Of a stretch of 64,000 nucleotides of DNA, positions 3,289 through 37,761 are shown piece after piece. Below the pieces are notes generated by a model. That model did no database searches and was not told where the DNA came from. It was given only the letters and a program-made list of their open reading frames with translations. The translations under genes were made by a program, and so were the position numbers. Each line of letters opens with the position of its first letter. Within the stretch, counting starts at the first letter, position 1. The stretch comes from Candidatus Didemnitutus sp. (lineage in GTDB: Bacteria > Verrucomicrobiota > Verrucomicrobiia > Opitutales > Opitutaceae). Location: the NCBI GenBank assembly GCA_019634575.1, contig JAHCAY010000001.1, forward strand, positions 248,001-312,000. Direction: 5' to 3'.

Positions 3289-3493
3289 GCGTGGGCGGCG
3301 GGAAGGAGCGTCGGTGCTCGTTGGTCGATCGGATCGCCGATACTGCGGCGGCGTATCCTCGGATGCGGTCTGAGCATAGTTCGGTGGAGCGCGTTCGGTG
3401 GAGTGCGTCCCGTGCTTGAAGTGCGGCGGCTTGAGCCCGCCGAGCGAATGGCTCTCGCCGCCGAGGTCTACGGAGCTCGACGCAAGCGCGCGA

Positions 3494-4432
3494 TCATGCG
3501 TCGATCGATTCCGGCATGAGCGCGGTTGTCGACGGGAATGAAATCGCCGGTGTGCCGGGCCGAGTGTTGGTCAGCTTCTGCAGGCGTCGATTGAGATCGG
3601 TGATCGAGGCGTTCACGGCGCTGACGCTCTCCGATTGCTCACGTGAACCGCAGGAAATCTCCGCGACGGCGGTGTCGAGCTCGCGGGCTTTGCCTGCGAC
3701 GTCTTGCAGCGTTTCGCTCAAGGCAATCTTGAGCATCTCGCATTGACTGATCCAATTCACGGCATCCTCGACTTTGCTGGACGTCTGTTGCGCGGCTTCA
3801 GAGGCGTCCTTTGCGAGCCGGCGGACCTCGTCGGCGACGATGGAAAAGCCGGCGCCCGCCTCGCCGGCACGCGCCGCTTCGACGGCGGCGTTGAGCGCGA
3901 GCAGATTGGTCTGGAAGGCGATTGCGTCGATCGTCTGCAAAATCTTCGAAATCTCGCCGCTGCTCTGGTTCAGCGCCTCGATCGCATCGCCGATGGCCTG
4001 CAACTCACGCACACCGCGGTCGGCGGTTTCGTGAGTCGCGCTGGCGAGAGAGGTCGTTTGTTTGGCCTGGTCGGCGTGCTGTTGGATCAGCGAAACCGCA
4101 GTGCTGAGTCGGTCGTTAGCACGCGCCACCGAGGCGGTTTCCTGCTGCAGCGTAACGGTTGACGCGGCTTGGGCTTGCCGAGCTTCGTCCACGGCGATGG
4201 CGAATTCGTGCGCGGCCGCATCGGATTCCGCGACGATGGCCGCGATCGCGTTCGAGGTGCTCCGGTAGGTCCAGATGGCCACAAGCAAGGCGACTCCTCC
4301 GCAGGCGAGCCCGATCCAAGTCTCACTGGGGCTCGCGTTTCCACGCGACAGCACGACCGCCGGTGTCCCCGCCAGAATTACGAGAACACCGAGGCCAATT
4401 GCGTATTTAGTCCGCGAGTGGCGAGGGTTCAT
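3494..4432 (-). CDS. Methyl-accepting chemotaxis protein, compact
   Basis: A 312-residue chemoreceptor-type signalling protein. From the ATG at 4432 it has two closely spaced hydrophobic segments (about residues 12-31 and 40-58), leaving almost no periplasmic loop. No HAMP domain is evident, and a coiled-coil methyl-accepting domain follows. The hairpin tip that binds CheA/CheW is well conserved ([20 protein letters not shown] region, then [13 protein letters not shown]). The absence of a sensor domain suggests it senses membrane or cytoplasmic cues, or a partner protein. An in-frame start 22 codons upstream is possible but adds a basic leader untypical of the family. No che genes are in the window. 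Confidence 0.93.
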
Positions 4433-4535
4433 GGCGCGAAGACCGGACGATGCGCTCGGCTTCATCCTGGTTATCGGCACGGCGCGCCGGCGATTCACCA
4501 GCGACGACGGCCTGCAGCGGCGCTGCTGGCGGTAA

Positions 4536-5894
4536 TTAGACGCGGTATTCGTGCAGCGGCACGGGATCGAGCAGCTTCGTGTGCGGCAGCTTCTCGGCGA
4601 GCTGCTGCATGAACCAGGCGCGCGCCGGCGGATCGCCGTGAGTGATCACGAGCGAACGGGGTTGGCAGTCGATGGCGAATTGCAGCAACTCCTCGCGGTC
4701 GGCGTGCCCGGAAAGGTCGAAGCGCTCGATCTGGCAGCGGATTTTCGTCTTCACGTTGACCGCGTCGAAAAGGAACTCGTCACCCTGGCGCGAAGCGAGC
4801 AGGCGGCCGCCGGCGGTGTCGGGGTCGCAATAGCCCACGAAACAGATCGCGTTCTTCGCATTGCCGGCGAGCGCCGAGGCGAGTGCGTAGGACGGCGTGT
4901 TGTCCACGACCATGCCGGAGCTGACGACGTAGATGCCTTGCTGCGGCGGCTGCTTGCCGGGCTGGAGATCGCGGGGCGTTTTGCGCACACCGAGGTCTTT
5001 CAGGATCGTGCGGGTGAAGTGCACCTGACCGGTCTTCTTGGCGATGTCGTCAAAGTAGTCGCACAGATCCATGCCGAGGCCGGACGCGAAGATCGGGGAC
5101 TCGACGAGTTTGCCGAACTTTTTCGCGTCGTGGAGCACGGCAAGGATTTCCTGCATGCGGCCGAGCGCAAAGACTGGAATCAGCACCGAGCCGTCGCGCT
5201 GGAGCGTCTCGTTGATGGTGTCGACGAGGCGCGTGACCTCGCGCAGGCGCGAATGGTCGGACGGGCGTTCGGTCGCGCCGCGCGTCGTTTCCATGACCAG
5301 CGTGTCGTAGCGGACGCGGGGAAATTTCGCGGGGTTGATCGTGCGCTGCGCCTCGAAGAGGACGTCGCCCGTGAAGAAGATGCGGCGGTGCTTGTGCACG
5401 ATCTCGACGCCGGCGGCGCCGACGATGTGGCCGGCGGGGAAGAAGGTGAATTCGATCTCGTCGCGCTGGCCGGAGAATTTCTTCGGGTTGTTGAAGCCGT
5501 GCGCGTGCAGGCGCGGCATGAGGCGATCGATCTCCTCGTGCGTGAAGAGCGGGTAATCCATCACGTTCTTTTCCGCGCGCTCGCGCACCATCACGTTGGC
5601 GGAGTTGTGCAGCATGCGATCGATGATCATGCGGCTCGGTTGGGTCATGACGACCGGCGTGTTCGGATGCTCCCTCATCAGAATCGGCAGCGAACCGATG
5701 TGATCGAGGTGGCAGTGCGTGATGATGATCAGGTCGAGCTCGACGTCGCGCAACGGCGTCAAATCCGGTGCGGCCTGGCGGCCGACTTGTTTCGGATGCA
5801 ACCCGCTATCGATGACGAAATGAAAATCGCCGAGCTGGCAGTATGTGGAATTGGCGCCGATGCCGCCGTCGCGATTGAGATCGATGAGCTTCAT
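4536..5894 (-). CDS. Metallo-beta-lactamase fold beta-CASP RNase-like protein
   Basis: A 452-residue member of the MBL-fold beta-CASP family, which includes RNA nucleases such as CPSF73/Ysh1. The zinc motif HCHLDH is at residues 60-65. Further motif residues include the FFTGD aspartate and LSGHAD, the latter in the C-terminal RNA-specificity (RMMBL) segment, with a closing SLVITHGD. The start at 5894 gives the family-like N-terminus [11 protein letters not shown]. An upstream ATG eight codons earlier is less likely. It is probably cytoplasmic and acts on RNA 3' ends or as an endonuclease; the exact substrate is unknown. It is separated from apaG on the same strand by 84 bases. Confidence 0.9.
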
Positions 5895-5978
5895 TGCGGG
5901 GCTGCCAAGGAGGCGCACCGCACCGGCAAGGGCAAGTTAAAGCGCTGTCCGGTTTCCGTCACGCGGGCAACGCGCGCG

Positions 5979-6365
5979 TCATGCCGGCGGGATTTCCAGA
6001 GCGAATTCCGGGATGCGCACGAAGATGTGCGCGCCGAACTCGTCGACGCCGTGAAAACTGCCGTGCACGCGCGCGTCAGTCGCGGTGACGTGATAGCTGT
6101 TGTAGGAAAAGTGTTCGCCCGGTGCGAGGCGCGGCGTCTCTCCGACGATGCGGTCGCCTTCGATGACGAGGCGCGTGCCGTCGCCGTGCACGACGACCCA
6201 TTTGCGACCGAGCAACGTCACGGTGCGGTCGGCATCGTTGTGGATCGTGAGGTAGTAGATGAAGGCGTGCGGTCGGTCCGGCGGGAGCTCATCACCGCCG
6301 TGGCGGTAGACGAGTTTATCTAATTCAACGCGAAGTCCGCGTAATTCCAGTGGAGCTGAGGGCAT
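5979..6365 (-). CDS. apaG: ApaG family protein
   Basis: A 128-residue ApaG (DUF525) protein, a single fibronectin-type III-like beta-sandwich. Recognisable family features are the YYLTIHN strand, the LLGRKWVV segment, and GETPRLAPGE followed by YNSYH. Full length matches the family. ApaG proteins are linked to Co2+/Mg2+ effects and to Ap4A metabolism in enterobacteria, but their molecular role is unsettled. It lies upstream of the beta-CASP gene on the same strand and is divergent from fhs, whose start is 54 bases away. Confidence 0.93.
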   Translation of the reverse strand: MPSAPLELRGLRVELDKLVYRHGGDELPPDRPHAFIYYLTIHNDADRTVTLLGRKWVVVHGDGTRLVIEGDRIVGETPRLAPGEHFSYNSYHVTATDARVHGSFHGVDEFGAHIFVRIPEFALEIPPA

Positions 6366-6419
6366 TAGACGTTGAGCGAATTTTCGCTGAGCGGTTGAAT
6401 GGATTTACCGGAGGACCCC

Positions 6420-8045
6420 ATGAAGAAAATCGCGGATGTCGCGAGGGAGATTGGAATCGCGGAAAAGCATCTGGTGCTTTTCGGCCAAGACAAGGCGAAG
6501 GTTGCGCTCGAGGCACTCGAGAACAAGCCGTCGCGTGGGAAGCTGATCTTGGTGTCGGCGATCACGCCGACGCCCGCCGGCGAAGGCAAGACGGTGACGT
6601 CGATCGGCCTCGCGCAGGGCATCGCCAAGCTCGGCAAGCGCGCCGCGCTGGCACTGCGCCAGCCGTCGATGGGGCCAGTCTTCGGTCGCAAGGGCGGAGC
6701 CACGGGCGGCGGTCGCAGCACGGTGCAGCCCGCGGTGGATATCAATCTCCACTTCAATGGCGACTTCCACGCGATCACCTCGGCGCACAACCTCCTCGCG
6801 TCGATAATCGACAACCAACTCCATCTGAAACAGTCACGGCTCACGCCGACGCAGGTGCTGTGGAAACGCGTCCTCGACGTGAACGATCGCGCGCTGCGCA
6901 ATGTCGTGCTCAACGCCGGCGGCAAGTCGGGCGAGCGCCGGAGCGGCTTCGATATCACCGCAGCATCCGAGATCATGGCGATCCTTTGCCTGAGCGAATC
7001 GATGCGCGATCTGCGCGCCCGCCTCGATCGCATCGTGATCGGCTTCACGACGGAGGGCGTGCCGGTGCGCGCGTCGGAATTCAAGGCTACCGGCGCCTTG
7101 CTGGCGCTCCTGCGCGATGCGTTGAAGCCGAACCTGGTGCAGACTTGCGAGGGCGTGCCGGCGTTCGTGCACGGCGGGCCTTTCGCGAATATCGCGCACG
7201 GTTGCAACTCGGTGCTGGCGACACGTCTGGCACTCGCGCACGCGGATTTCGTGGTGACGGAAGCGGGGTTTGCCTTCGACCTAGGCGGCGAGAAGTTCAT
7301 CGACATCAAATGCCGGCAGACGGGCCTCAATCCCGACGCCATCGTGCTCGTGGCGACGGTGCGCGCGCTGAAGTTGCACGGCGGCGCACCGGCCGACGCG
7401 CTCGCGCAACCGGACTTCGCGGCGCTCGAACGCGGACTCGCCAACCTCGAGGCGCATGTGACCGCGGCGCGGAATTTCAACCGCCCTGTGACGGTCGCGT
7501 TGAACAAATTCCCGAGCGACACGCCCGACGAACTCGTGCGGGTCCGCGCGTTCTGTCACGCGCTCGGTGTGGAGTGCGAGGTCTCGGAAGTCTTCGCGAA
7601 GGGCGGGGAGGGCGGACTCGCGCTCGCGGAAACCGTGCTGCACTCGATCTATTCCAGCACTCCGCCGCTGCAATACACCTACCGCGACGAACAGCCGATT
7701 CGCGAAAAGATGGAGGCGATCGCACACCGTTTCTACGGTGCCGACGGCGTCGACATCCTGCCCGAAGCCGAGATCAAGCTCGGGCTCTTCGAGATCGCCG
7801 GCTTCGGCAAGTTGCCCGTGTGCATGGCCAAGACGCAAAATTCGCTCACTGATGATCCGGAGAAGATCGGCCGTCCGCGCGGCTTCCGTGTCACGGTGCG
7901 CGATTTCGAACTGGCGGCGGGCGCGGGCTTCGTCGTCGCGCTGACCGGTCAGATGATGCGCATGCCGGCGCTGCCCAAGGTGCCGGCGGCCGAACATATC
8001 GATGTCGATGCCAGCGGCGACATCGTGGGAATTTCCGGCACCTGA
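6420..8045 (+). CDS. fhs: Formate--tetrahydrofolate ligase
   Basis: Makes 10-formyl-THF from formate, THF and ATP in the cytoplasm. It has 541 residues, slightly shorter than the usual 555-560. The P-loop-like motif [10 protein letters not shown] is at residues 49-58, and [14 protein letters not shown] and the NLGGEKF-type block are conserved. The ATG at 6420 has a strong GGAGGA at 6410-6415; an upstream in-frame ATG at 6399 is ignored for that reason. The next gene is purH, whose transformylase step uses 10-formyl-THF, so the pair is metabolically coherent although a terminator lies between them. Confidence 0.97.
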
Positions 8046-8068
8046 GCCGGGCCCTAACCCCGAGCAGG

Positions 8069-8103
8069 CGAGCGGTCGGCGCGAGTCGGCCGCTCGTTTT
8101 TTT
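8069..8103 (+). terminator. Rho-independent terminator after fhs
   Basis: A 7-bp perfect stem (8069-8075 with 8090-8096) is followed by a run of seven T at 8097-8103. It sits 24 bases after the fhs stop and ends 66 bases before purH, so purH likely has its own promoter. Confidence 0.8.
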
Positions 8104-8169
8104 GCCGACGCGCGTGTCACGGAGGTTTTCCCGCTTGCCAGCCTACGCGGCCGTCACGTCCTTAGATTG

Positions 8170-9726
8170 ATGGCTAAGCTCGCGCTCCTTTCCGTCTCCG
8201 ACAAACGCGGCCTGGTGGACTTCGCCACCGCCCTCGTCCGCTCGCACGGCTACAAGCTGTTGTCGACCGGCGGCACCGCCAAACTGCTCGCGGAAGCGGG
8301 TCTGCCCGTCACTGAAGTGAGCGCGCACACGGGTTTCCCGGAGATGATGGAGGGTCGCGTGAAAACGCTACATCCCAAGATCCATGGCGGCCTGCTCTGC
8401 CGGCGCGACAAGGCCGATCACCTCGCGGCCGCGGAACAGCATGGCATCGACCTGATCGACCTCGTGGTCGTGAATCTTTATCCGTTCGAGCAGACTGTCG
8501 CGAAGCCGCACGTCGAGTTCGAGGAGGCGATCGAGAACATCGATATCGGCGGCCCGTCGATGCTGCGCAGCGCGGCGAAGAACCACGAGAGCGTCAGCGT
8601 CGTGTGCGATCCGGCGGACTACACTGGCGTGCTCGCGGCGCTGGCGGCGGGCGAGGGGAGCGCGGAGTTGAAGGCGCTGCGTCGCAAGCTCGCGTTGAAG
8701 GTTTTCCAGCGCACCGGCGCCTACGACACGGCGATCGCGAAGTATCTCGAAACCCAGCAGGACGAGCCCGACCTCGAAGCGCTGAGCGGTTTTCCGGCGA
8801 CCTATTCGCTCTCGCTCAAGAAGGCGCAGAGCCTCCGCTACGGCGAGAACCCGCACCAAAAGGCGGCGCTCTACGGCACGTTTCACGAGCACTTCCAGCA
8901 ACTGCAAGGCAAGGAACTCTCGTATAACAACATTCTCGATATCACCTCCGCGACCTACCTGATCGGCGACTTCGAAAAACCGACCGTTGCGATCCTCAAG
9001 CACACGAATCCCTGCGGCGTCGCCAGTGCGGACACATTGCTCGGCGCGTGGGAAAAGGCCTATGCCACCGACCGTCAGGCACCGTTCGGCGGCATCATCG
9101 TCGTCAACCAGACGCTCGGCCAGGACGTCGCGGAGCAGATCAAGGACATCTTCACTGAGGTGATCATCGCGCCGCGTTTCAGCGACGAGGCGCTGGCGAT
9201 TTTCGCCAAGAAAAAGAACCTGCGCCTCATGATCGCAAAAGGCGGCATCGGTGCCGATGCGCTGCAGGAAGTGCGCTCGGTTGTCGGCGGCGTGCTCGTG
9301 CAGGACCGCGACCGCTCGATGGAGAAGATGGCTGGCTGCAAAGTCGTGACCAAGCGCCAGCCGACCGCGGAAGAGTGGGATTCGCTGCTCTTCGGCTGGA
9401 AGGTCTGCAAGCACGTCAAGTCGAACGCCATCGTCTATTGCCGCGGCGAACAGACCCTCGGCGTCGGAGCTGGCCAGATGGCGCGCGTCGACAGCTCGCG
9501 CATCGCGGTTTGGAAAGCCGGCGAGGCGAAACTCGATTTGCGCGGCTCTGTCGTGGCGAGCGAGGCGTTGTTTCCGTTTCCCGATGGCTTGCTGGCTGCC
9601 GCCGATGCCGGAGCGACGGCGGCGATCCAGCCGGGCGGTGCGATCCGCGACGAGGAAGTCATCAAGGCCGCCGACGAGCGCGGCATGGCGATGGTTTTCA
9701 CGGGCGTCCGCCACTTCAAACACTGA
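8170..9726 (+). CDS. purH: Bifunctional AICAR transformylase/IMP cyclohydrolase
   Basis: Catalyses the last two steps of IMP synthesis. The 518-residue protein has an N-terminal MGS-like cyclohydrolase domain (about 1-150) and a C-terminal AICAR transformylase domain. Typical signatures are LLSVSDKRG at the start, [34 protein letters not shown] and the C-terminal [11 protein letters not shown]. The ATG at 8170 gives the standard N-terminus; the longer open frame upstream runs through the fhs terminator and is not used. Confidence 0.97.
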
Positions 9727-28415: not shown

Positions 28416-28538
28416 GGCGTGGCGTGGGTCGCGCCCGCACTGCATTTGCAGGCTTGCGCGCGTTTTGTCGCTAAGAAAACTGCCGCGCGCACGTCGTCCC
28501 GTGATTCACATCCGTGCACCGTCCACCTCTCTCCCGTC

Positions 28539-29771
28539 ATGCTGATCCGTTTCTCACCGCTCCGTCCGACCGTTTGGCTGGTTTGCTGTGCCGCGCTGCT
28601 TTCGTTGCCGGCTCGCGCCGCTGACAACGAAGCGCTCGAGAAGCGCTATCGCGAAGCCAACGCGAAGGTCGACGCCGGCGAATTCCAACCGGCGCTCGAA
28701 ATCTACAACGAGATCCTCGAGACCGAGCCGAAGGCAGGCAATGTCTGGGTGATGCGCGGCATCGCGAAGTGGAAACTGAAAGACCTGAGCGGAGCGCGGG
28801 CCGATCTGGCCCAAGCCATCGCGCTCCATCCCGACAACCTCGACGCCTATCGCGTGCGCGGCCAGATGCGCTATGAAGCCGCCGACTACGCCAACAGCTT
28901 GGCCGATTTCACCAAGGCAATTGATACGCTGAAGAAAATTGTAGACCATGTCGACGAGAGCGTGCCCGGACAGGCGACTCAGGCACGCGAATTCCTGGCG
29001 GCGAACGCGGAGCTTTTCGGCATGCGGGCCGAGGTGGAAAACAAGCTCGGCGATCGCCCGTCGGCGATCCACGACCTGACGCGCGCGATCGAGTTGAAAC
29101 CGGACTACACGGCGGCGTATTTCCTGCGCGCGCAGCTCTACGAGGCGGACGGCGAAACCACGGCGGCGGCGGAAGATTACACGAAGGTCATCGCGTTGAA
29201 CCCGAAACACGCCGATGCGCTCAACAATCGGGCCTGGATTCGCTTCCACGAACGGAAGTGGGACGAAGCGATAGCGGATGCGAGGAAAGTGCTGGAATAC
29301 GCACCGAAAGCCGACGCGACGCTGCGCGTGCTCGGCTATACGCAATTCGCCAAGGGCGACTACATCGAGGCTGGTCAAACACTCGCGGCGGCAGCGGATG
29401 CCGATTCGAGCTCGGGGGCGGCCTACGCGCTTTTCGTGCGGCACTACGCGATGCTCCGCGCGGGTGGGGCGGACAAACGTGTGGCCACCTCCTGGGGCAA
29501 CTGGAAGGACGAGCCGTGGTTGCAGGCGCTGGCGAAATTCATCGCGGGGCAGATCGACGAAGACGCCCTTGAAACCGTAGCGAAGGACACGCGGGACGAC
29601 GGCGAACTCGCCGGCCGCGCGTGCGAGATGCACTTCTACGTCGGACTCGCGCGCAAACAGGCGGGCGACAAATCGACCGCGCGCCTGCGTTTTCAATCGG
29701 CGCTCCAGACCGAGCAAAAGACCTACGTCGAATACACGCTGGCGCAGGCGGAGTTGCCCCGGACGAAGTGA
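28539..29771 (+). CDS. Exported TPR-repeat protein
   Basis: A 410-residue protein with a signal peptide (MLIRFSPLRPTVW to ARAA, about residues 1-27) followed by tetratricopeptide repeats. Examples are the units around ALEIYNEILETEPKAG, ARADLAQAIALHPDN, AIHDLTRAIELKPD and AAEDYTKVIALNPKH. It has a non-repeat C-terminal part with a conserved-looking YVGLARKQAGD helix. Probably a periplasmic or outer-membrane-associated scaffold. The start at 28539 was chosen for the signal peptide; the open frame extends 40 codons upstream. Confidence 0.88.
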   Translation: MLIRFSPLRPTVWLVCCAALLSLPARAADNEALEKRYREANAKVDAGEFQPALEIYNEILETEPKAGNVWVMRGIAKWKLKDLSGARADLAQAIALHPDNLDAYRVRGQMRYEAADYANSLADFTKAIDTLKKIVDHVDESVPGQATQAREFLAANAELFGMRAEVENKLGDRPSAIHDLTRAIELKPDYTAAYFLRAQLYEADGETTAAAEDYTKVIALNPKHADALNNRAWIRFHERKWDEAIADARKVLEYAPKADATLRVLGYTQFAKGDYIEAGQTLAAAADADSSSGAAYALFVRHYAMLRAGGADKRVATSWGNWKDEPWLQALAKFIAGQIDEDALETVAKDTRDDGELAGRACEMHFYVGLARKQAGDKSTARLRFQSALQTEQKTYVEYTLAQAELPRTK

Positions 29772-29821: not shown

Positions 29822-30994
29822 ATGAAATGGCTGCGTCCCACGCTTGGCTGGTTGATCGGAGCGACCGTCGTGTTGGCTTTCATCGGCTGCAGCGCTCCTC
29901 CGCGCCCGACGGCGATGCAGAGCACGCCACCGCCACCGCCACCACCTCCTCCTCCGCCACCGATGGCAATGCCCCAAGCGGGCAATCCGAACGTCGCGCG
30001 CGGCTTCGAATTCGATCAGGTGCGCGTGTTCTTCGCGACCGATCGCCGGGCGAACGGGGTCGGTGAATTCGGTGGCGAGCGCGGCAGCGAGATCGCTTAC
30101 GGCAACGTCTTTGTGAGCATTCCGCGGCAGCACCGGATCGGAGGCATCGAGCAGCCGTCCATCTGGCGGCTCGAATTCTCCGAGGATCCGCGCAAGCACA
30201 TGACCATCGTCCGCCGGGCGACTTATCCGCGCGACGACTTCGTCGCCGCGATTCGCGAAACCCTCGCGCGCGGTGGCAGTGAGGCGTCGTTCGTGTTCGT
30301 GCACGGCTACAACGTGGCGTTCGACGACGCTGCGCGCCGCACGGCGCAGATCGCCTACGATCTCGATTTCCGCGGTGCACCGGTTTTCTACAGCTGGCCC
30401 TCGCAGGCGTCGCTCGAAGGCTACACGGTGGACGAGGCGAACGTCGAGTGGAGCATGCTCAACCTGAAAAACTTCCTGCTCGATTACGCGCAGCATTGCG
30501 GCGCGAAGGACATCTACCTCATCGCCCATTCGATGGGAAACCGCGCACTCACCCGCGCGGTTTCGACGCTGTTCACGGAACACCCGGAACTGCGCGGACG
30601 CTTCAAGGAAATCATTCTCACCGCGCCGGACGTCGATGCGGACGTCTTCAAGCGCGAGCTCGCGCCGAAGCTCGTGGCCGGCTGCGACAAGATCACGCTC
30701 TACGTCTCGGACGGCGACAAGGCATTGCTCGCCTCGAAGAAAGTTCACGGCTACCCGCGCCTCGGTGACGCGGCGGCCGGGATCGCAGTGATGCCGGGCG
30801 TGGAAACCGTCGACGCTTCCGGTCTCGATACCAGTTTTCTCGAGCATTCATATTTCGCGACCAGTGGTTCCGTGCTGCAGGACATCCGTCGGCTCGTGCT
30901 GGAAGGCCTGCGCGCCGCACAGCGCGGTCTAGCCGAGAAAGGCGACACGGCAGACCGGCGGTATTGGAAGTTTCTTCTGCCCACGGCGCATTGA
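29822..30994 (+). CDS. DUF900-type alpha/beta hydrolase lipoprotein
   Basis: A 390-residue lipoprotein: signal peptide with lipobox FIGC (C23), then a run of 12 prolines (residues 36-47) as a spacer, then an alpha/beta-hydrolase domain. The fold is marked by FVFVHGYNV (160-165) and the nucleophile elbow AHSMGN with S237. An Asp in VDADVFK and a His in FLEHSYF are possible remaining catalytic residues. Related DUF900 proteins are predicted esterases of unknown substrate. The proline run is encoded by an imperfect CCN repeat at about 29925-29962, prone to length change. Confidence 0.88.
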   Translation: MKWLRPTLGWLIGATVVLAFIGCSAPPRPTAMQSTPPPPPPPPPPPPMAMPQAGNPNVARGFEFDQVRVFFATDRRANGVGEFGGERGSEIAYGNVFVSIPRQHRIGGIEQPSIWRLEFSEDPRKHMTIVRRATYPRDDFVAAIRETLARGGSEASFVFVHGYNVAFDDAARRTAQIAYDLDFRGAPVFYSWPSQASLEGYTVDEANVEWSMLNLKNFLLDYAQHCGAKDIYLIAHSMGNRALTRAVSTLFTEHPELRGRFKEIILTAPDVDADVFKRELAPKLVAGCDKITLYVSDGDKALLASKKVHGYPRLGDAAAGIAVMPGVETVDASGLDTSFLEHSYFATSGSVLQDIRRLVLEGLRAAQRGLAEKGDTADRRYWKFLLPTAH

Positions 30995-31019: not shown

Positions 31020-31409
31020 TCAGTCGAGCGTCCGCAGGTAGGCGATCAGGGCGGCGACTTCCTCCGGTGAGTGCTTTTTCGCGAATGACGGCATCTCGCC
31101 GGGAATGCCCCGGAGCACGACGTTCGCGATGCGGCGATCGCTGACTTGCAGCGCGTGGAGGTCGGGCCCTTCGTCGCCGCGCGCGTCGGCGCCATGGCAA
31201 TGGGCGCAACTGTTCAGGTAGAGATCGTGGCCGGTGCGGGTGAGCGTATCCAGCGTCGCCCTGGCCGGCGTCGGCAAACCGGTCCAAGGCGGCAGTTCGT
31301 GCGAATCGCGCCGGGCACGGGCTTCGAGGAGTCTGCCGAGGGCCACGGAGCTGCCGAGCACGATCGCGGCGGCGGTCGCGCTGAAAACCAGGGCTCGATA
31401 CGGGGTCAT
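31020..31409 (-). CDS. Membrane-anchored mono-haem cytochrome c
   Basis: A 129-residue class I cytochrome c. The uncleaved-looking N-terminal hydrophobic segment (6-27) is followed by the haem site CAHCH (68-72) and the axial methionine in GEMPSF (M106). It closes with the AALIAYLRTL helix typical of these domains. It acts in the periplasm as an electron carrier. Its ATG overlaps the stop of the DUF2231 gene (ATGA), so the two are translated together, downstream of the phosphoesterase. Confidence 0.93.
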   Translation of the reverse strand: MTPYRALVFSATAAAIVLGSSVALGRLLEARARRDSHELPPWTGLPTPARATLDTLTRTGHDLYLNSCAHCHGADARGDEGPDLHALQVSDRRIANVVLRGIPGEMPSFAKKHSPEEVAALIAYLRTLD

Positions 31410-31831
31410 GGGAGCGATTGGGAAAGTTGGCCGCCCCAATGGCCGGTCGCAGCGACCAATCCTGCGATGGCGAGCAACAGGACGAGGTGACCGAGATGCG
31501 CGCGCCGTGAGACCGGCAGGGGCCGGCATTGCCGCCAGACCGCCAGTCCGGTCAGCAGCGCGACCATGGGCCAGAGGAACAGGTGGTGCCAACGCAGGGC
31601 GCCGTGGCCCCACAGGTTGCCGCGCGTGAGCCAGAGACCCGATACGAGCGGCGGCCAGCAGCTCACGGCGGCGGCGATGACGGTGTAGCGGGCCATGTTA
31701 AGCCAGGTGCCGGACGACGGCCGGCGCCACGTGAGCTGCGCCAGCGAGTCGCCGAACAACGCGAAGAAAACCAGGGCGATCGGGAAGTGCACGGTGGCGC
31801 CGTGCACTTGGGCCCAAAGCGGTGCGGACAT
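31406..31831 (-). CDS. DUF2231-like four-helix membrane protein
   Basis: A 141-residue membrane protein with four predicted helices (about 12-35, 46-68, 82-98, 110-130). The N-terminal HGATVHFPIAL matches the VHFPIA signature of the DUF2231 family, and several histidines in the helices (WHHLFLWP, HLGHLVL) could bind haem. It sits between a Tat phosphoesterase (6 bases upstream) and a cytochrome c. Inference: a membrane redox partner for that cytochrome. Confidence 0.82.
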   Translation of the reverse strand: MSAPLWAQVHGATVHFPIALVFFALFGDSLAQLTWRRPSSGTWLNMARYTVIAAAVSCWPPLVSGLWLTRGNLWGHGALRWHHLFLWPMVALLTGLAVWRQCRPLPVSRRAHLGHLVLLLAIAGLVAATGHWGGQLSQSLP

Positions 31832-31837
31832 GTCGGC

Positions 31838-32806
31838 TTACTTCTCGGCGAGGGTGTGATCGACGACGGCGAGCGGCTTGTCGTGCTCGAGGAAGGTCAC
31901 CTCGGTCAAACCGAGCGTGGAACGCAGGCGCGGCGCCTCGACGACCATGGGGCCGGGCTTGGGTGCGGCACCGGGCGCGGGTTGCGGAAACGCGGTCGAG
32001 CAAGCGGTGTGGAAGGTGACGTTGCCTTCGATTTTTTGCAGGGTCTGGTGAATGTGTCCGTTCAGAACCGTGACGGATCCGAAGCGCTTCAGCAGCGTGA
32101 GCGCCTTCTCGGCGTCGCTCGTGCCCCAGCCCCATTGCGGGTAGACGGACCAAAGCGGAATGTGCGCGTAGACCACGATGGGCGTCTCGGCCGAGAGCGG
32201 CGCGAGGTCGCGCGCCAGCCAGTCGAGCTGCTCGGCGCCCAGCACGCCGAGGCCGCCTTCGGCGATCGCCGCGACGTTGACCAGGCCGATGAAATGCACG
32301 CCCTTCTGGTCGAAGCTGTGCCAGCCGGCGCCGAAGGTGTTGCGGCCGAAACGGGCGCGGTATTGGGCGCCGTTGTCGTTGAGGATGTCGTGCTCGCCGG
32401 GCACGTAGAAGACCTGCTTGGTGCGGCAGTCCTTCAGCAGTTGTTCGAGCGTGTCGAACTCGGCCGCTTCGGACAGGTGCGTGAGGTCGCCGGTGTGCAG
32501 GATGAAGTCCGGTGCATGCTGGAGCGCGTTGATGCGTGCAATCGACTCGCGGAAGGTCCCGACGACATCCTGATTCGCCGGCTTGTGAAAGCCGATGTGG
32601 CTGTCGCTGATTTGAACGAAGTGCAGGGCATTGCCGCCCGCCAAGGGGAGATCGCCGAGCCCGGTCGTCTGGCCCAGCACCTTGGACGTGAGGACGCCGC
32701 TGCTGAGGGTCCACAGCACGCCGGTGCCTGCCCAGGCCATGCACTTGAGGAAGCCACGGCGGTCGATGCCGTCGTGATGATGATCGTCGAGGATGAAGTC
32801 GCTCAT
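31838..32806 (-). CDS. Tat-exported metallophosphoesterase
   Basis: A 322-residue calcineurin-like phosphoesterase. The N-terminus carries a twin-arginine signal (DRRGFLK, R16/R17, then a hydrophobic stretch), so it is exported folded. Metal motifs are in order: QISDSHIG, HTGDLTH, VPGEHD, a YAHIPLW histidine and NGHIH. It is first in a three-gene run with the DUF2231 protein and cytochrome c, and is divergent from an ECF sigma gene. The phosphoester substrate is not predictable from sequence. Confidence 0.92.
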   Translation of the reverse strand: MSDFILDDHHHDGIDRRGFLKCMAWAGTGVLWTLSSGVLTSKVLGQTTGLGDLPLAGGNALHFVQISDSHIGFHKPANQDVVGTFRESIARINALQHAPDFILHTGDLTHLSEAAEFDTLEQLLKDCRTKQVFYVPGEHDILNDNGAQYRARFGRNTFGAGWHSFDQKGVHFIGLVNVAAIAEGGLGVLGAEQLDWLARDLAPLSAETPIVVYAHIPLWSVYPQWGWGTSDAEKALTLLKRFGSVTVLNGHIHQTLQKIEGNVTFHTACSTAFPQPAPGAAPKPGPMVVEAPRLRSTLGLTEVTFLEHDKPLAVVDHTLAEK

Positions 32807-32821
32807 AAGGTTTCATCTCCC

Positions 32822-32849
32822 GTTACGCCGAGGCCGGGCGGTTTATTCG
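32822..32849 (-). promoter_or_regulatory. Putative ECF-sigma promoter for the phosphoesterase operon
   Basis: On the minus strand CGAATAA (32849-32843) is separated by 15 bases from CGTAAC (32827-32822). The 27-base stretch from GAATAAAC to CGTAAC matches the plus-strand copy at 32875-32901 at 21 positions. It lies 16 bases before the start codon. Assigned as a -35/-10 pair by pattern and symmetry; it could instead be half of a dyad operator. Confidence 0.55.
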
Positions 32850-32873
32850 CCGGAAAAGAAAAAAGCTGCGCCG

Positions 32874-32901
32874 GGAATAAACGGCCCGGGCGCCGCGTAT
32901 A
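32874..32901 (+). promoter_or_regulatory. Putative autoregulated ECF-sigma promoter
   Basis: GGAATAA at 32874-32880, a 15-base spacer and CGTATA at 32896-32901, 21 bases before the sigma start codon. The GGAA-type -35 and CGT-type -10 are characteristic of ECF promoters, and the same motif points the other way toward the phosphoesterase gene. Confidence 0.6.
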
Positions 32902-32922
32902 TGTAATCAGGCCCTCGCCGCC

Positions 32923-33441
32923 ATGACCTCTCCCTTCGAGCAAACGATGCTGCCGCACCTGGATGCCGCCTACAACCTGGCGCACTGGCTGTTGCGCAAC
33001 GAGCAGGATGCACGGGATTCCGTGCAGGAGGCCTATCTGCGCGCGTTCAAGGCCTTTCACGGCTTCCGCGGCGGAGACGGACGCGCCTGGCTGCTGACGA
33101 TCGTGCGCAACGTCTGCTACACGCATCTGCGGCGGATGCAGCGCCAGCTGCCCACCGAGCCGTTCGACGAAAGCCAGCACGGGCGGGTCAACGAGCCGGC
33201 GGAACTGGCGGTGCTCGACCGGCAGGAGATCGATCACGCGCGCTTGGATGCGGCGCTGACGGCGCTGCCGGTCGATCTTCGCGAGGTGTTGGTGCTGCAC
33301 GAAATCGAGGGACTCGCCTATAAGGAGATCGCGGCCGTCGTGGGCATCCCGCTCGGCACCGTGATGTCGCGTCTCTCCCGCGCGCGTCTGCGTCTGAACC
33401 GCGCCCTGCTCGGTCCCGCCCAATCGGAGGAACGTCCATGA
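32923..33441 (+). CDS. ECF RNA polymerase sigma factor
   Basis: A 172-residue ECF sigma factor with region 2 (NEQDARDSVQEAYLRAF, AWLLTIVRN) and region 4 (LPVDLREVLVLHEIEGLAYKEIAAVVGIPLGTVMSRLSRAR). It overlaps the anti-sigma gene by ATGA. The upstream region carries an ECF-like promoter motif also found in mirror image in front of the phosphoesterase operon. The simplest reading is that this factor switches on both itself and that operon. Confidence 0.95.
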   Translation: MTSPFEQTMLPHLDAAYNLAHWLLRNEQDARDSVQEAYLRAFKAFHGFRGGDGRAWLLTIVRNVCYTHLRRMQRQLPTEPFDESQHGRVNEPAELAVLDRQEIDHARLDAALTALPVDLREVLVLHEIEGLAYKEIAAVVGIPLGTVMSRLSRARLRLNRALLGPAQSEERP

Positions 33442-34211
33442 CCTGCGAACAAATCCGCCCGCTGCTCGGCTCGCATCTCGACGAGGAGCTCGACGTCGTG
33501 CACGATGCCACCGTCGTCGCGCATCTCGACACTTGCCCGCATTGCACCCGCGAGTTGCAGGCGCTGACCGAGCTACGCCGGACGTTGCAACGCAGTCCAC
33601 TGCGCCGCGCTGCGCCGGTCGACTTGGCGGCGCAGATTCGCCGGCAACTCGCGGCCGAGCCGGCGGCGCACGCGGGACGCGTCGTGCGTTTTCCACGGCG
33701 CTGGTCGCAAGCGTTCGCGCTCGCCGCCTCGATTGCGCTCGCGGGGGCGATCGGTTTTCAGTGGGGCCGCATGCGGAGCGAACGGATCGGATTCACGGAC
33801 GATGCCACCGCCAGCTTTGTCCGGGCGCGCGCGACGGGACGGCTTTACGAAGTCGCGTCGTCGAGTCAGCACACGGTGAAGCCGTGGTTCGCGGGGCGCG
33901 TGGACTTTTCGCCGGCAGTGCCGGACTTGGCGGCGCAGGGATTTCCGCTGCTGGGCGGACGAGTCGAGCGCTTCGGAACGCGTCCGGCGGCTGCTTTGGT
34001 CTACGGACGGCGGCAGCACACGATCGACGTTTACGTCTGGCGTGACGGTCCGGCCGCGAGCGAGGCTCCGGTGCGCGAAGCCGGTTTCACGCTGCTGGGT
34101 TGGAAAGGGGAGGACGGGCTCTTCTATGTGGCCGTCTCGGATCTCGCGGCGCCTGAGCTGATGGAATTCCGGCGGCAGTTCACCGGAGTGGACGCGTCGC
34201 TTCCGCAATAG
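33438..34211 (+). CDS. Zinc-finger anti-sigma factor
   Basis: A 257-residue single-pass membrane regulator. The N-terminal domain has H29-x3-C33-x2-C36 (HLDTCPHC) plus C3, the zinc-binding anti-sigma (ZAS) layout. A hydrophobic segment lies at about 89-108, then a periplasmic domain of about 145 residues containing SQHTVKPWF and repeated short strands (RQHTIDVYVW). The C-terminal domain presumably senses the stimulus, which is unknown. Overlap with the sigma gene supports the pairing. Confidence 0.92.
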   Translation: MTCEQIRPLLGSHLDEELDVVHDATVVAHLDTCPHCTRELQALTELRRTLQRSPLRRAAPVDLAAQIRRQLAAEPAAHAGRVVRFPRRWSQAFALAASIALAGAIGFQWGRMRSERIGFTDDATASFVRARATGRLYEVASSSQHTVKPWFAGRVDFSPAVPDLAAQGFPLLGGRVERFGTRPAAALVYGRRQHTIDVYVWRDGPAASEAPVREAGFTLLGWKGEDGLFYVAVSDLAAPELMEFRRQFTGVDASLPQ

Positions 34212-34263
34212 CTCTGCTGCCGGATACGGACACCGCGCGCCAAGTGCGCGCGCGCCGCCGCGC

Positions 34264-34400
34264 TCAGAAGCCCGGCATGCCGCCGCCTTTGCGCATAGCT
34301 TCCATCTGGCGCATCAGCTTCTTCTGATTCCCGCCCTTCATCATCTACCTGAGCTGATTCACTTCGACGACTTTCACGTCCGAGCCGGCTGGCACACGCC
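34264..34400 (-). pseudogene. Decayed copy of the ffh 3' end (SRP54 M domain)
   Basis: The plus-strand sequence from 34264 to about 34378 matches the ffh 3' end at 36409-36552, including the stop codon. A 59-base block differs at only about four positions. Relative to ffh it lacks 9 and 30 bases, both multiples of three, and has an in-frame TAG (minus frame NQLR-stop). Weaker protein-level similarity ([16 protein letters not shown] versus [16 protein letters not shown]) continues to about 34400. It cannot encode a functional protein. It lies in the same orientation as ffh, on the far side of the BNR gene. Confidence 0.88.
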
Positions 34401-34506
34401 CGGGAGCGTCGTGATTCTTGCGGCTTACGAAGTGTTCGCGGCGACTGGCTTCGCCCGTTCCACACTCAGTCGCGAATAGTCCGGATCGCGCCTGACTGAC
34501 CGAACC

Positions 34507-36195
34507 TCAGTCGGCCGTCTCGACGAAGCCGACGGCTTCGAGGTTGTAATCAGCGTAGGATCTGAAGACGCCGCGAGTCCACAGGACGACGCGCTGCGCT
34601 CCATCGCGGACGATGATCGGGCGGAGGTTGGCGACGGACGAATCGTGCGTGACGGGCTCCCATTTCACCGTCTGGAGATTGTCGTGCGGCCCGATTTTCG
34701 CGCGGTAGATTTCGTGCCGCCCGCCGGAATCGATGCCCGTGCTCGGATTCACGTTGGTGGAGATGAAAACCTGGGTCGGATCGACGGGGTCGAGGGTGAC
34801 GAGTCCGGTGTAACTGGCTTCCTTCGCGTAGAGACAGCGGCCGCCGTAGGCGATCTCGCGGTCGATCCACTTCTTTCCGTCCCACGAGGCGAGACGGTAG
34901 CGGTGGTCGTCGTTCGAGAGGTAGAGCGTGTAGGCGATGTGCGGGCGGCCCTGCGTGTCGAGGGCGATGGACGAAGTCCACGCGGCGGATGGAGCATTTC
35001 CGAGCGTGGCGCCGTCGGTCTTCACGCCGCTGCCGCGGAAAATCCGCTCGGCGGCGGAGGGCTTCAGCGGTCCGTCGGCGAGATCGGAAATCTTCGTGCC
35101 GTCGGCGCGGTAGAAAGCGCGGCCGCGAAACGCGGTGTAGTAAATGCTGTTTCCGAAGTCGCGGGGGTGCGCGTCGGTGAACGTCACGAGGACGGTGTCG
35201 CGGCCGTTGCCGGCATAGCGCGCATACGGACGTTGGTAACCGGGGACCTCGCTTTTGATGAAGTGCGTATCCTCGCTCCAAGTCAGGCCGTCGTCGGTGG
35301 AGGTCACGAAGCTGGGGTTGAACTCGAAGCCGCGGTAGAAATTGTAGAGCTTACCCTCGGCCGAGAGCGGTAGGAGATTCATGTAAGTCACGCGGTCGCG
35401 CTCGGGGAGCGTCGCGGTGTGGTCGATGCGTTTCTCCTCGGACCAACGCGTGCAGTCCTGCGGATCGCTGACGCGGTAATAGTGGAATTTCTCGCGACTG
35501 TGTCGCGCATACATCGCGAGCACCGAGCCGTCGGGTCGCGCGTAGAACACGGGAGAGTTATGGTCGTCGCAGTCGAATTTCTCGTGCAGGACGAACGGGC
35601 CGAGCGATTTTTCCGCGCGCAGATCGTAGATGCCGACCAGCGCCTCGCCGTCGCCGTTTCCCTTAACGGCACCGATGAAGAGTTTACCCTGATGTAGGAT
35701 GACGCGCGGATCCTGATACCAGCACCAACCCGCGTCCCGCATGAACGTGGTCAACCTCACGCGTGCCGCTGTGTCTGCGGTCGGCGTCGGAGCCGCGCTG
35801 ACGGACGCAGCAAGGCGAGCGGGCGTCTGATCGTCGGCGAGTCTGAACACTCCTGCGGTCGCCGCGACAAACAGCCCGGAACCGTAAACCTCGGGGTAGT
35901 TCGCAAACGAGACCCCCGGCGCGTCGCACACCGGTTGCACCCAGCCCACCATGCCCGCGTAAAGCGCGCCACGGTGCCAGACGAGTTCGTGGGATTTACG
36001 GCGATTCTCGGGCTTGTCGCGCGAATCGGGCAGAGCGCAATAGGTGCCCACGTCCTCGAACGTCGCGATTTGCCGATCGGCAACATTGCGGTCGAGCGTG
36101 TAGACCTCCGGCGCGTCGACCGGTCCAGTGGGCGCGGCGAACAACCAAGTCGGAATCAGAACACAGAGAAGCAGCAAGCGGGAGTGGGTCGTCAT
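34507..36195 (-). CDS. Secreted BNR-repeat protein (BNR_4 / ulvan-lyase-like fold)
   Basis: A 562-residue protein with a Sec signal peptide (MTTHSRLLLL to LFAAP) and a beta-propeller-like body. It has the sequence style of the BNR_4 family, which includes PL24/PL25 ulvan lyases and sialidase-like proteins. Examples are WYQDPRVILHQGKLFIG, CDDHNSPVF with DGSVLAMYARHS, and FNPSFVTSTDDGLTW. The Asp/His-rich DDHNSP block is typical of the putative active site. Likely acts on an external polysaccharide; substrate unproven. The ATG at 36195 is used rather than one 35 codons upstream. It stands alone, flanked by intact ffh and the ffh remnant. Confidence 0.85.
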   Translation of the reverse strand: MTTHSRLLLLCVLIPTWLFAAPTGPVDAPEVYTLDRNVADRQIATFEDVGTYCALPDSRDKPENRRKSHELVWHRGALYAGMVGWVQPVCDAPGVSFANYPEVYGSGLFVAATAGVFRLADDQTPARLAASVSAAPTPTADTAARVRLTTFMRDAGWCWYQDPRVILHQGKLFIGAVKGNGDGEALVGIYDLRAEKSLGPFVLHEKFDCDDHNSPVFYARPDGSVLAMYARHSREKFHYYRVSDPQDCTRWSEEKRIDHTATLPERDRVTYMNLLPLSAEGKLYNFYRGFEFNPSFVTSTDDGLTWSEDTHFIKSEVPGYQRPYARYAGNGRDTVLVTFTDAHPRDFGNSIYYTAFRGRAFYRADGTKISDLADGPLKPSAAERIFRGSGVKTDGATLGNAPSAAWTSSIALDTQGRPHIAYTLYLSNDDHRYRLASWDGKKWIDREIAYGGRCLYAKEASYTGLVTLDPVDPTQVFISTNVNPSTGIDSGGRHEIYRAKIGPHDNLQTVKWEPVTHDSSVANLRPIIVRDGAQRVVLWTRGVFRSYADYNLEAVGFVETAD

Positions 36196-36408
36196 GCGCG
36201 GTTGGGGACAATTGTTGAGCCGACGGGGTCTGCGGCTGCGCTCAGGTCGTGAGCGCAGCATCCGGCGGCAAAAACCGGGCTCAAGCCGGATAGTCCGCAA
36301 ACTGTGTCAAGAGAAGCGGCGAGCCACCGGCCGACGCGATCCCCGTGGGGCCGGCGTTGCCGGGGCAGCGCGCGTTACACTGACGGTGTCAGCCGAGGTG
36401 GCGCGCGC

Positions 36409-37761
36409 TCAGAAACCCGGCATGCCGCCCATGCCACCGCCTTTGCGCATGGCTTCCATCTGGCGCATCAGCTTCTTCTGGTTTCCGCCCTTCATCATCT
36501 TCATGAGCTTCTGCATCTGTTCGAACTGCTTCATGAGCTGATTCACTTCGACGACCTTCACGCCGGCGCCGTTGGCGATACGGATGCGGCGGTTGCCATT
36601 GAGAATTTGCGGCTTCCGGCGCTCCTGCACGGTCATCGAGAGGATGATGGCTTCGGTGCGCTTCATCTGCTTGTCGGCGTCGCCGGGCAATTCGACGCCG
36701 CTCATGCCGGGCATCATGCCGAGGATGGACTGCATCGAGCCCATCTTCTTCACCTGCTGCATCTGCGAGAGGAAGTCTTCGAGGTTGAAGTCCGCCTTGC
36801 GCATCTTCTCCGCCATGCGCTCGGCTTCCTTCTGATCGATGGTCTCCTGCGCCTTCTCGACGAGCGACACGACGTCGCCCATGCCGAGGATGCGCGAGGC
36901 GAGGCGGTCCGGGTGAAACACCTCGAAGTCCGCCGTCTTTTCGCCGGTGCCGACGAATTTGATCGGCACGCCGGTGACGCTCTTGATCGACAGCGCGGCG
37001 CCGCCGCGGGCGTCGCCATCCATCTTCGTGAGGATGAGGCCGGTGAGCGAGAGGGCGTCGTGGAAGGTCTTGGCGACGTTCACGGCCTCCTGGCCGAGGG
37101 CGCCGTCGGCGACGAGGATGATCTCGTCGGGTTGCACACGCGCGCTGAGTTTCTTCACTTCCTCGACCAACTCGGTGTCGATCTGGAGTCGGCCGGCGGT
37201 GTCGAAGAGGATGATGTCGGCGTTGGCGGCGGTCGCGGCGTCCAGCGCCTGGGCGCCGATGGCGGGCACGTCCTTGGAGGCGCGGTCGCAGTAGAAGCCG
37301 AGTTCTTCCTGCTTCGCGAGAATCTCGAGCTGGTCGATGGCGGCGGGGCGATAGACGTCGCACGCGACGACGAAGGGGCGAGCACCCTTTTTCTTGAGCA
37401 ATTTGCCGAGCTTCGCGGTCGAGGTGGTTTTGCCCGAGCCGTGCAGACCGACCATCAGGATGCGCAACGGGCGCTTGGCGGAGAGTTCGGTCGTGCCTTC
37501 GCCGAGCAGCTTCACGAGCTCGTCGTGGATGATCTTGATGACCATCTGGCCCGGCGTGACCGATTTCAGGACTTCCTGACCGACGACGGCTGTCTGCACG
37601 CGCTCGATGAATTCGCGCGCGACCTTGAAGTGCACGTCGGCGGCGAGGAGGGCGGCGCGCACTTCCTTGAGCGCGTCGGCCATGTTTTCCTCGGACAGCT
37701 TGCCGACGCCGCGGAGGTTGCGCAGCGCGTTGGTCAGTTTGTCGGTCAGGGATTCGAACAT
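36409..37761 (-). CDS. ffh: Signal recognition particle protein Ffh (SRP54)
   Basis: Targets nascent membrane proteins to the translocon with 4.5S RNA. 450 residues: N domain, GTPase G domain with [27 protein letters not shown] and [11 protein letters not shown], then the Met-rich M domain ([27 protein letters not shown]) ending MGGMPGF. The ATG at 37761 gives the standard MFESL start; 13 upstream codons are not used. A second, broken copy of its 3' end lies 2.1 kb downstream. Confidence 0.98.

What the first reader, a model, noticed from the sequence alone, without database searches (positions are those of the whole stretch)
34264..36552. Duplicated ffh 3' end brackets a secreted BNR-repeat gene
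The last roughly 140 bases of ffh (36409-36552) recur in the same orientation at 34264-34378 as a degraded copy with an in-frame stop. The only gene between them is the BNR-repeat protein. Regenerated 3' ends with a displaced remnant are what integration into the end of an essential gene leaves behind, usually at tRNA genes, and ffh would be an unusual target. The two gaps in the remnant (9 and 30 bases) are multiples of three, and weaker similarity (RVPAGSDVK) extends further. The remnant may therefore come from a divergent ffh allele rather than a fresh duplicate. No integrase is visible.
Basis: partly seen in the sequence, partly recalled or inferred. Interest (0 to 1): 0.75.

Follow-up and report, generated by a model that had tools for sequence, protein, structure and literature searches.

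The report
Second ffh tail marks gene rearrangement
A broken second copy of the end of an essential gene (ffh) next to a newly acquired secreted-enzyme gene is real, and it looks like the scar of an ordinary DNA rearrangement rather than a mobile element's docking site, although a related genus does carry series of small gene cassettes docked at exactly that gene end.

Summary
In detail: the ffh 3' end (36404-36571) recurs in the same orientation at 34259-34387, far above chance, in only this one of 13 congeneric genomes. The decisive new fact is what touches the remnant. Bases 34389-34479 are the in-frame C-terminal tail, with stop codon, of a ceramidase-like membrane-protein gene. In the two closest congeners examined (G001, G007) that gene lies immediately after ffh, convergent with it. 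"ffh end | neighbour tail ... ffh" is the joint expected from a short tandem duplication (or a one-sided homologous/illegitimate recombination) across the two convergent 3' ends. It is not what a displaced attachment end looks like. BNR (34507-36198) then lies in the inner interval. A five-gene cassette (31020-34211) replaced the rest of the neighbour gene. Both gaps in the remnant match slippage deletions between direct repeats.

In another genus of the same family, 0.9-14-kb units rich in toxin genes are docked at one fixed site in ffh, each with a regenerated ffh tail and a conserved ~90-bp end, with two empty/occupied species pairs. This locus fails all three hallmarks of that system (breakpoint, end sequence, empty-site match).

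The parts
36409..37761 (-). intact ffh (SRP54 homologue, 450 aa)
   Evidence: SRP54_N, SRP54 and SRP_SPB Pfam domains; 97% identical to congener G001
36404..36571 (-). part of the functional ffh 3' end that is duplicated
   Evidence: direct-repeat families D1, D3, D9
34259..34387 (-). second, degraded ffh 3' end with in-frame TAG, a 30-bp and a 9-bp deletion
34380..34390 (.). joint between the ffh fragment and the neighbour-gene tail (short overlap around GCCGGC)
   Evidence: similarity to ffh ends and similarity to the ceramidase-like gene begins here
34389..34479 (+). C-terminal tail with stop codon of a ceramidase-like gene that lies next to ffh in G001 and G007 (WHTPGSVVILAAYEVFAATGFARSTLSRE*)
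   Evidence: alignment score 41 to the G007 gene and 32 to the G001 gene, against random-piece maxima of 20 and 26; gene order in G001/G007; PF05875
34507..36198 (-). BNR_4 gene with an apparent signal peptide (563 aa), inserted between ffh and the neighbour tail
   Evidence: PF15892 E 3e-25; absent from all 12 congeners; patchy in the order, 26 of 372 genomes
31020..34211 (.). five-gene cassette: cytochrome c, DUF2231, metallophosphoesterase (all -), ECF sigma factor, anti-sigma factor (both +)
   Evidence: Pfam; same five genes in the same order in G029 and G052 at unrelated places; anti-sigma gene not clearly matched in congeners
29822..30994 (+). DUF900 alpha/beta-hydrolase gene, shared left boundary of the variable interval with G001/G007
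34494..34512 (.). small hairpin sequence just outside the BNR stop codon (possible terminator; function untested)
36378..36394 (.). small hairpin sequence just after ffh (possible terminator; function untested)

Best explanation
The second ffh end is the new joint of a short tandem duplication across two convergent genes. In the ancestor, ffh and a ceramidase-like gene faced each other with their 3' ends almost touching, as they still do in G001 and G007. A segment made of the last roughly 75-90 bp of the ceramidase-like gene, the intergenic gap and the last roughly 150-165 bp of ffh was duplicated head to tail. This leaves both outer genes whole and creates an internal 'ffh end | ceramidase tail' joint. 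Freed from selection, the inner ffh end lost 30 bp and probably 9 bp by slippage between direct repeats and gained a stop codon. The interval is variable in this genus, and two acquisitions followed: BNR entered the inner intergenic gap, and a five-gene sigma/anti-sigma cassette replaced the outer ceramidase-like gene. Shown: the repeat, the joint, the neighbour's identity and position in relatives, both acquisitions. Inferred: that the joint arose by tandem duplication, and the order of events.
For: The tail of ffh's native convergent neighbour abuts the ffh fragment, which is the novel joint a tandem duplication must make. Both copies share TGAGCGCG at and after the stop, unlike G001 and G007. 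The remnant is as close to its own ffh and to G001 as those are to each other: 5, 4 and 3 differences in 102. The 30-bp gap lies between 11-bp repeats that are themselves 30 bp apart in ffh. The ffh-trpF interval varies from about 50 bp to 8 kb in the genus with different genes in each species, so separate insertions there are expected.
Against: It needs three events. No genome with the duplication but without BNR or the cassette is available, so the order is not observed. All six variable clean sites are synonymous third positions, which is more than neutral decay requires, although the remnant also carries a stop and a missense change. Sequence after the two stops agrees for only about 7 bases. 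The fragment and the genes left of it could have arrived together, since the segment 28.4-29.75 kb has a different history from its flanks.
Confidence: 0.5

Rival explanations
1. Homology-facilitated illegitimate recombination: a DNA fragment from a congener, carrying an ffh 3' end together with the cassette (or an ffh 3' end with BNR), recombined by homology at one end and was joined illegitimately between the ffh end and the ceramidase-like tail at the other. One event then explains the second ffh end, the truncation of the neighbour exactly at the joint, and one of the acquisitions.
For: Fewer events. The neighbour gene is cut exactly at the joint. Substitutions in clean sites are all synonymous, as if the fragment came from a functional allele. 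The TPR segment 28420-29752 shows star-like site patterns (44/45/40) while flanking genes group this genome with G001 (163/45/37 and 42/13/10), a sign of recombination in this interval. The process is described for Vibrio T6SS clusters with displaced 3' ends (PMC5361080).
Against: No genome with the proposed donor arrangement was found: anti-sigma homologues in G029, G036 and G052 are not next to ffh. The remnant groups with this genome and G001 rather than with an outside lineage.
Confidence: 0.32
2. Site-specific integration of a BNR-carrying element at the ffh 3' end, with a regenerated tail and a displaced remnant.
For: The same family contains genuine elements of this kind: fixed breakpoint, conserved end, up to four displaced tails in one genome, two empty/occupied species pairs. 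In G483 a single NUDIX gene lies between two ffh tails, a similar picture to BNR here.
Against: The breakpoint is at least about 39 bp upstream of the site used in the other genus, so the remnant carried both sides of that core. The conserved end is absent from this genome. The sequence before the remnant is the native neighbour's tail. The remnant is not followed by the neighbour gene as in G001 and G007. No integrase within about 71 kb.
Confidence: 0.1
3. Chance similarity or assembly artefact.
For: None beyond the fragment being short.
Against: Score 74 against a null maximum of 22; the copies differ by substitutions and two deletions, so they are not a collapsed or duplicated read; both lie inside one 3.6-Mb contig.
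Confidence: 0.01

Closest known systems
Insertion with long target duplication (Helicobacter pylori restriction-modification genes; Nobusato et al. 2000, as cited in PMC1643837)
   Same: An acquired gene lies between two long direct repeats made of the end of a resident gene.
   Different: Here a native neighbour's tail sits inside the repeat pair next to one copy, which a simple target duplication does not give, and the cargo is not a restriction-modification system.
Homology-facilitated illegitimate recombination with displaced gene ends (Vibrio cholerae T6SS effector clusters, PMC5361080)
   Same: A new gene is placed behind a conserved gene while an old 3' end remains further downstream.
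   Different: No donor or intermediate arrangement was found here, and ffh is a single-copy housekeeping gene.
Integrative elements that dock at the 3' end of protein genes (for example SGI1 at trmE, PMC8409611)
   Same: Regenerated gene end plus displaced tail in general appearance; genuinely so in the related genus described in the report.
   Different: At this locus breakpoint, end sequence and empty-site tests fail and there is no integrase.

Membership tests
Site-specific integrative element at a gene 3' end | displaced tail begins at a fixed core shared by independent insertions | tested here: not met
   remnant begins at least ~39 bp upstream of the core used in the other genus; only one insertion in this genus
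Site-specific integrative element at a gene 3' end | conserved element end next to the displaced tail | tested here: not met
   conserved end absent from this genome; native neighbour tail present instead
Site-specific integrative element at a gene 3' end | sequence after the displaced tail equals sequence after the gene in empty-site relatives | tested here: not met
   G001/G007 have the ceramidase-like gene after ffh; here the anti-sigma gene follows the remnant
Site-specific integrative element at a gene 3' end | integrase in or near the element | tested here: not met
   nearest PF00589 match about 71 kb away; serine recombinases not searched
Short tandem duplication | novel joint between the downstream end and the upstream end of one ancestral segment | tested here: met
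   ceramidase tail joined to ffh end; the two are adjacent in ancestral order in G001 and G007
Short tandem duplication | both outer genes left intact | tested here: inconclusive
   ffh intact; the outer ceramidase-like gene has since been lost
Homology-facilitated illegitimate recombination | one end joined by homology, other end without homology | tested here: inconclusive
   non-homologous joint shown; a history change at ~28.4 kb suggests recombination but no donor found
Insertion with long target duplication | uninterrupted target duplication directly bounding the insert on both sides | tested here: not met
   91-bp neighbour tail lies between BNR and the remnant

The most novel reading that the evidence does not exclude
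The 3' end of ffh is a docking site for small gene cassettes across this bacterial family, used by more than one recombination system, and the BNR gene here is one such cassette inserted at a second, more upstream crossover point.
Probability: 0.1. Interest if true: 0.75.

Novelty: new member of a known kind. Interest (0 to 1): 0.42.

Why it matters
For this window, it shows how a duplicated gene end can imitate the footprint of an integrative element, and that the sequence touching the joint decides between the two. Following it up exposed something more interesting: in another genus of the family, toxin-rich gene cassettes without their own integrase accumulate at one fixed site in ffh, each restoring the essential gene's end. 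I found no description of ffh as such a target in the open-access papers searched, which do not cover most subscription journals.

Tried and rejected
Further degenerate ffh tails in the window or downstream of ffh in nine congeners: none above background. Cassette ends as integron-like attC hairpins: single-strand folding z-scores run from -1.7 to +2.1, no signal. Hairpins on either side of BNR as element ends: each occurs once in the window, no repeats. Known RNA families at the locus: none. BNR on plasmids: only distant homologues under 30% identity among those listed. Composition: the BNR gene is not unusual in G+C. A BNR_4 gene next to ffh in another family (G129) is only about 27% identical and oppositely oriented, taken as coincidence. 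A first ffh query in the wrong frame was discarded and repeated correctly.

Full report
Observation. The last part of ffh (36404-36571, minus strand) is repeated in the same orientation at 34259-34387. A search of the whole genome finds the remnant and the true ffh end and nothing else. The alignment score, 74, compares with a maximum of 22 for random pieces of the window. Among 57 related genomes only this one shows an extra ffh C-terminal match. The intact ffh has all SRP54 domains, so the remnant is the dispensable copy: it has an in-frame TAG and two deletions. The 30-bp deletion runs between two 11-bp direct repeats (AGCTCATGAAG) that lie exactly 30 bp apart in ffh, and the 9-bp one fits two GGCATG repeats 9 bp apart. 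Slippage explains both, and explains why both are multiples of three.

What touches the remnant. The closest congener examined, G001 (ffh 97% identical), and G007 lack BNR and have a ceramidase-like gene (PF05875) immediately after ffh and convergent with it, then a DUF900 hydrolase gene. In the window, 34389-34479 is the C-terminal tail of that gene, in frame and with its stop codon: WHTPGSVVILAAYEVFAATGFARSTLSRE*. Its score to the G007 gene is 41, against at most 20 for about 2000 random pieces. The ffh fragment starts where this tail stops.

What surrounds it. BNR (34507-36198) has a BNR_4 domain, is absent from the 12 congeners, is patchy in the order (26 of 372 genomes) and has relatives in other phyla. 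On the other side, 31020-34211 holds cytochrome c, DUF2231, metallophosphoesterase, ECF sigma and anti-sigma genes; the same five genes in the same order occur in G029 and G052 at unrelated places, so they were acquired as a block. The interval between ffh and trpF ranges from about 50 bp (G012) to 8 kb (this genome), with different genes in nearly every congener. It is a generally variable interval.

Reading. In the ancestral order (ceramidase-like gene facing ffh), joining an ffh end to a ceramidase tail in the order seen is what a tandem duplication of the two facing 3' ends produces. Both outer genes stay whole at first, so it would be nearly neutral. BNR then occupies the inner gap and the five-gene block replaced the outer ceramidase-like gene. 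The main rival is a single event in which foreign DNA carrying an ffh end was joined by homology on one side and illegitimately on the other. Two observations lean that way: all six variable positions among 102 clean sites are synonymous third positions, and the TPR gene at 28420-29752 does not share the history of its flanks. The remnant itself, however, sits in an unresolved trio with its own ffh and G001 (5, 4 and 3 differences; G007 is 10 away), so a distant donor is unlikely. I give 0.5 to duplication and 0.32 to the rival. Which came first, the joint or BNR, is not shown.

The integration hypothesis. I tested it by looking for ffh tails across the family (252 genomes; 12 genomes in detail). 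It holds in another genus (g55 in the tool's numbering). G499 has four displaced ffh tails downstream of ffh, G489 three, and G354, G498 and G495 at least one each; G494 and G492 also carry one. All well-preserved ones start at the same place in ffh, CAGCAGATGCAGAA, about 104 bp before the stop. Each is preceded by a conserved end of about 90 bp, TGCCAnnannTGCCAYnATAAnnnnnnnTGCCn(8-9)TCTCAATAg and a further ~45 bases. A pattern for this end has 8 matches in 252 genomes, all in this genus and all next to ffh tails, with none for the reversed control. Two species pairs show empty and occupied sites: G491 against G495 (a unit of about 1.3 kb with a Fic gene) and G490 against G354 (about 0.96 kb with a PIN-domain gene). 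In each, homology between the empty site and the right side of the insert starts at the core and continues into the downstream gene. Cargo includes PIN, PemK/MazF-like, ParE and Fic proteins, a TIR-TPR protein, an acetyltransferase, a CAAX protease and a polysaccharide lyase, but no integrase among the genes tested. The tyrosine recombinase found about 14 kb upstream of ffh in G499, G489, G354 and G498 also occurs in G491, which has no array, so it is probably a conserved resident gene. The recombinase is unknown. Single-strand folding gives no attC-like signal. In G483, of a third genus, one NUDIX gene lies between two ffh tails with nearly the same breakpoint.

Applying those hallmarks here. 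The window's remnant starts at least about 39 bp upstream of that core, so it originally carried both sides of it. It has no such end, and the genome has none. It is not followed by what follows ffh in relatives. The likeness to the other genus's arrays is therefore taken as convergence in appearance, with 0.1 left for a second type of integration.

Limits. Genomes are one per species and unnamed, so within-species variation was not seen. Serine recombinases were not searched. Literature coverage is open-access only: prophage integration into the SRP RNA gene is reported (PMC8637289), but I found nothing on ffh.

Noticed in passing
L151 (G499 C9:20501-40500), L152-L153 (G489), L154 (G354), L155 (G498), L156 (G495), L157 (G494), L210 (G492): Arrays of small, toxin-gene-rich units without an integrase, docked at a fixed site in ffh; each unit carries a regenerated ffh tail and a conserved ~90-bp end (TGCCA repeats, TCTCAATA). 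Two empty/occupied species pairs support precise integration. Deserves its own study.
   Followed up: partly
L158 (G483), 4897-5801 on the minus strand: A single NUDIX gene between two ffh tails (94% identical over 147 bp) in another genus, with nearly the same breakpoint as the arrays.
   Followed up: partly
L161 (G539) and L162 (G446): Isolated ffh tails on contigs other than that of ffh, starting close to the same core; may be ends of fragmented arrays.
   Followed up: no
window 28420-29752: The TPR-type gene shows star-like site patterns among G000, G001, G007 and G008, while flanking genes group G000 with G001, suggesting recombination in this interval.
   Followed up: partly
window 31020-34211: Conserved five-gene unit: cytochrome c, DUF2231, metallophosphoesterase, ECF sigma, anti-sigma; same order in G029 and G052.
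   Followed up: partly
L118 (G129 C226) 5605-8471: A distant BNR_4 gene lies next to ffh in another family, convergent; about 27% identical, probably coincidence.
   Followed up: partly
L046 (G008) 3402-5751: Two tandem DUF900-type hydrolase genes after ffh in one congener, another sign that the ffh-trpF interval is variable.
   Followed up: no
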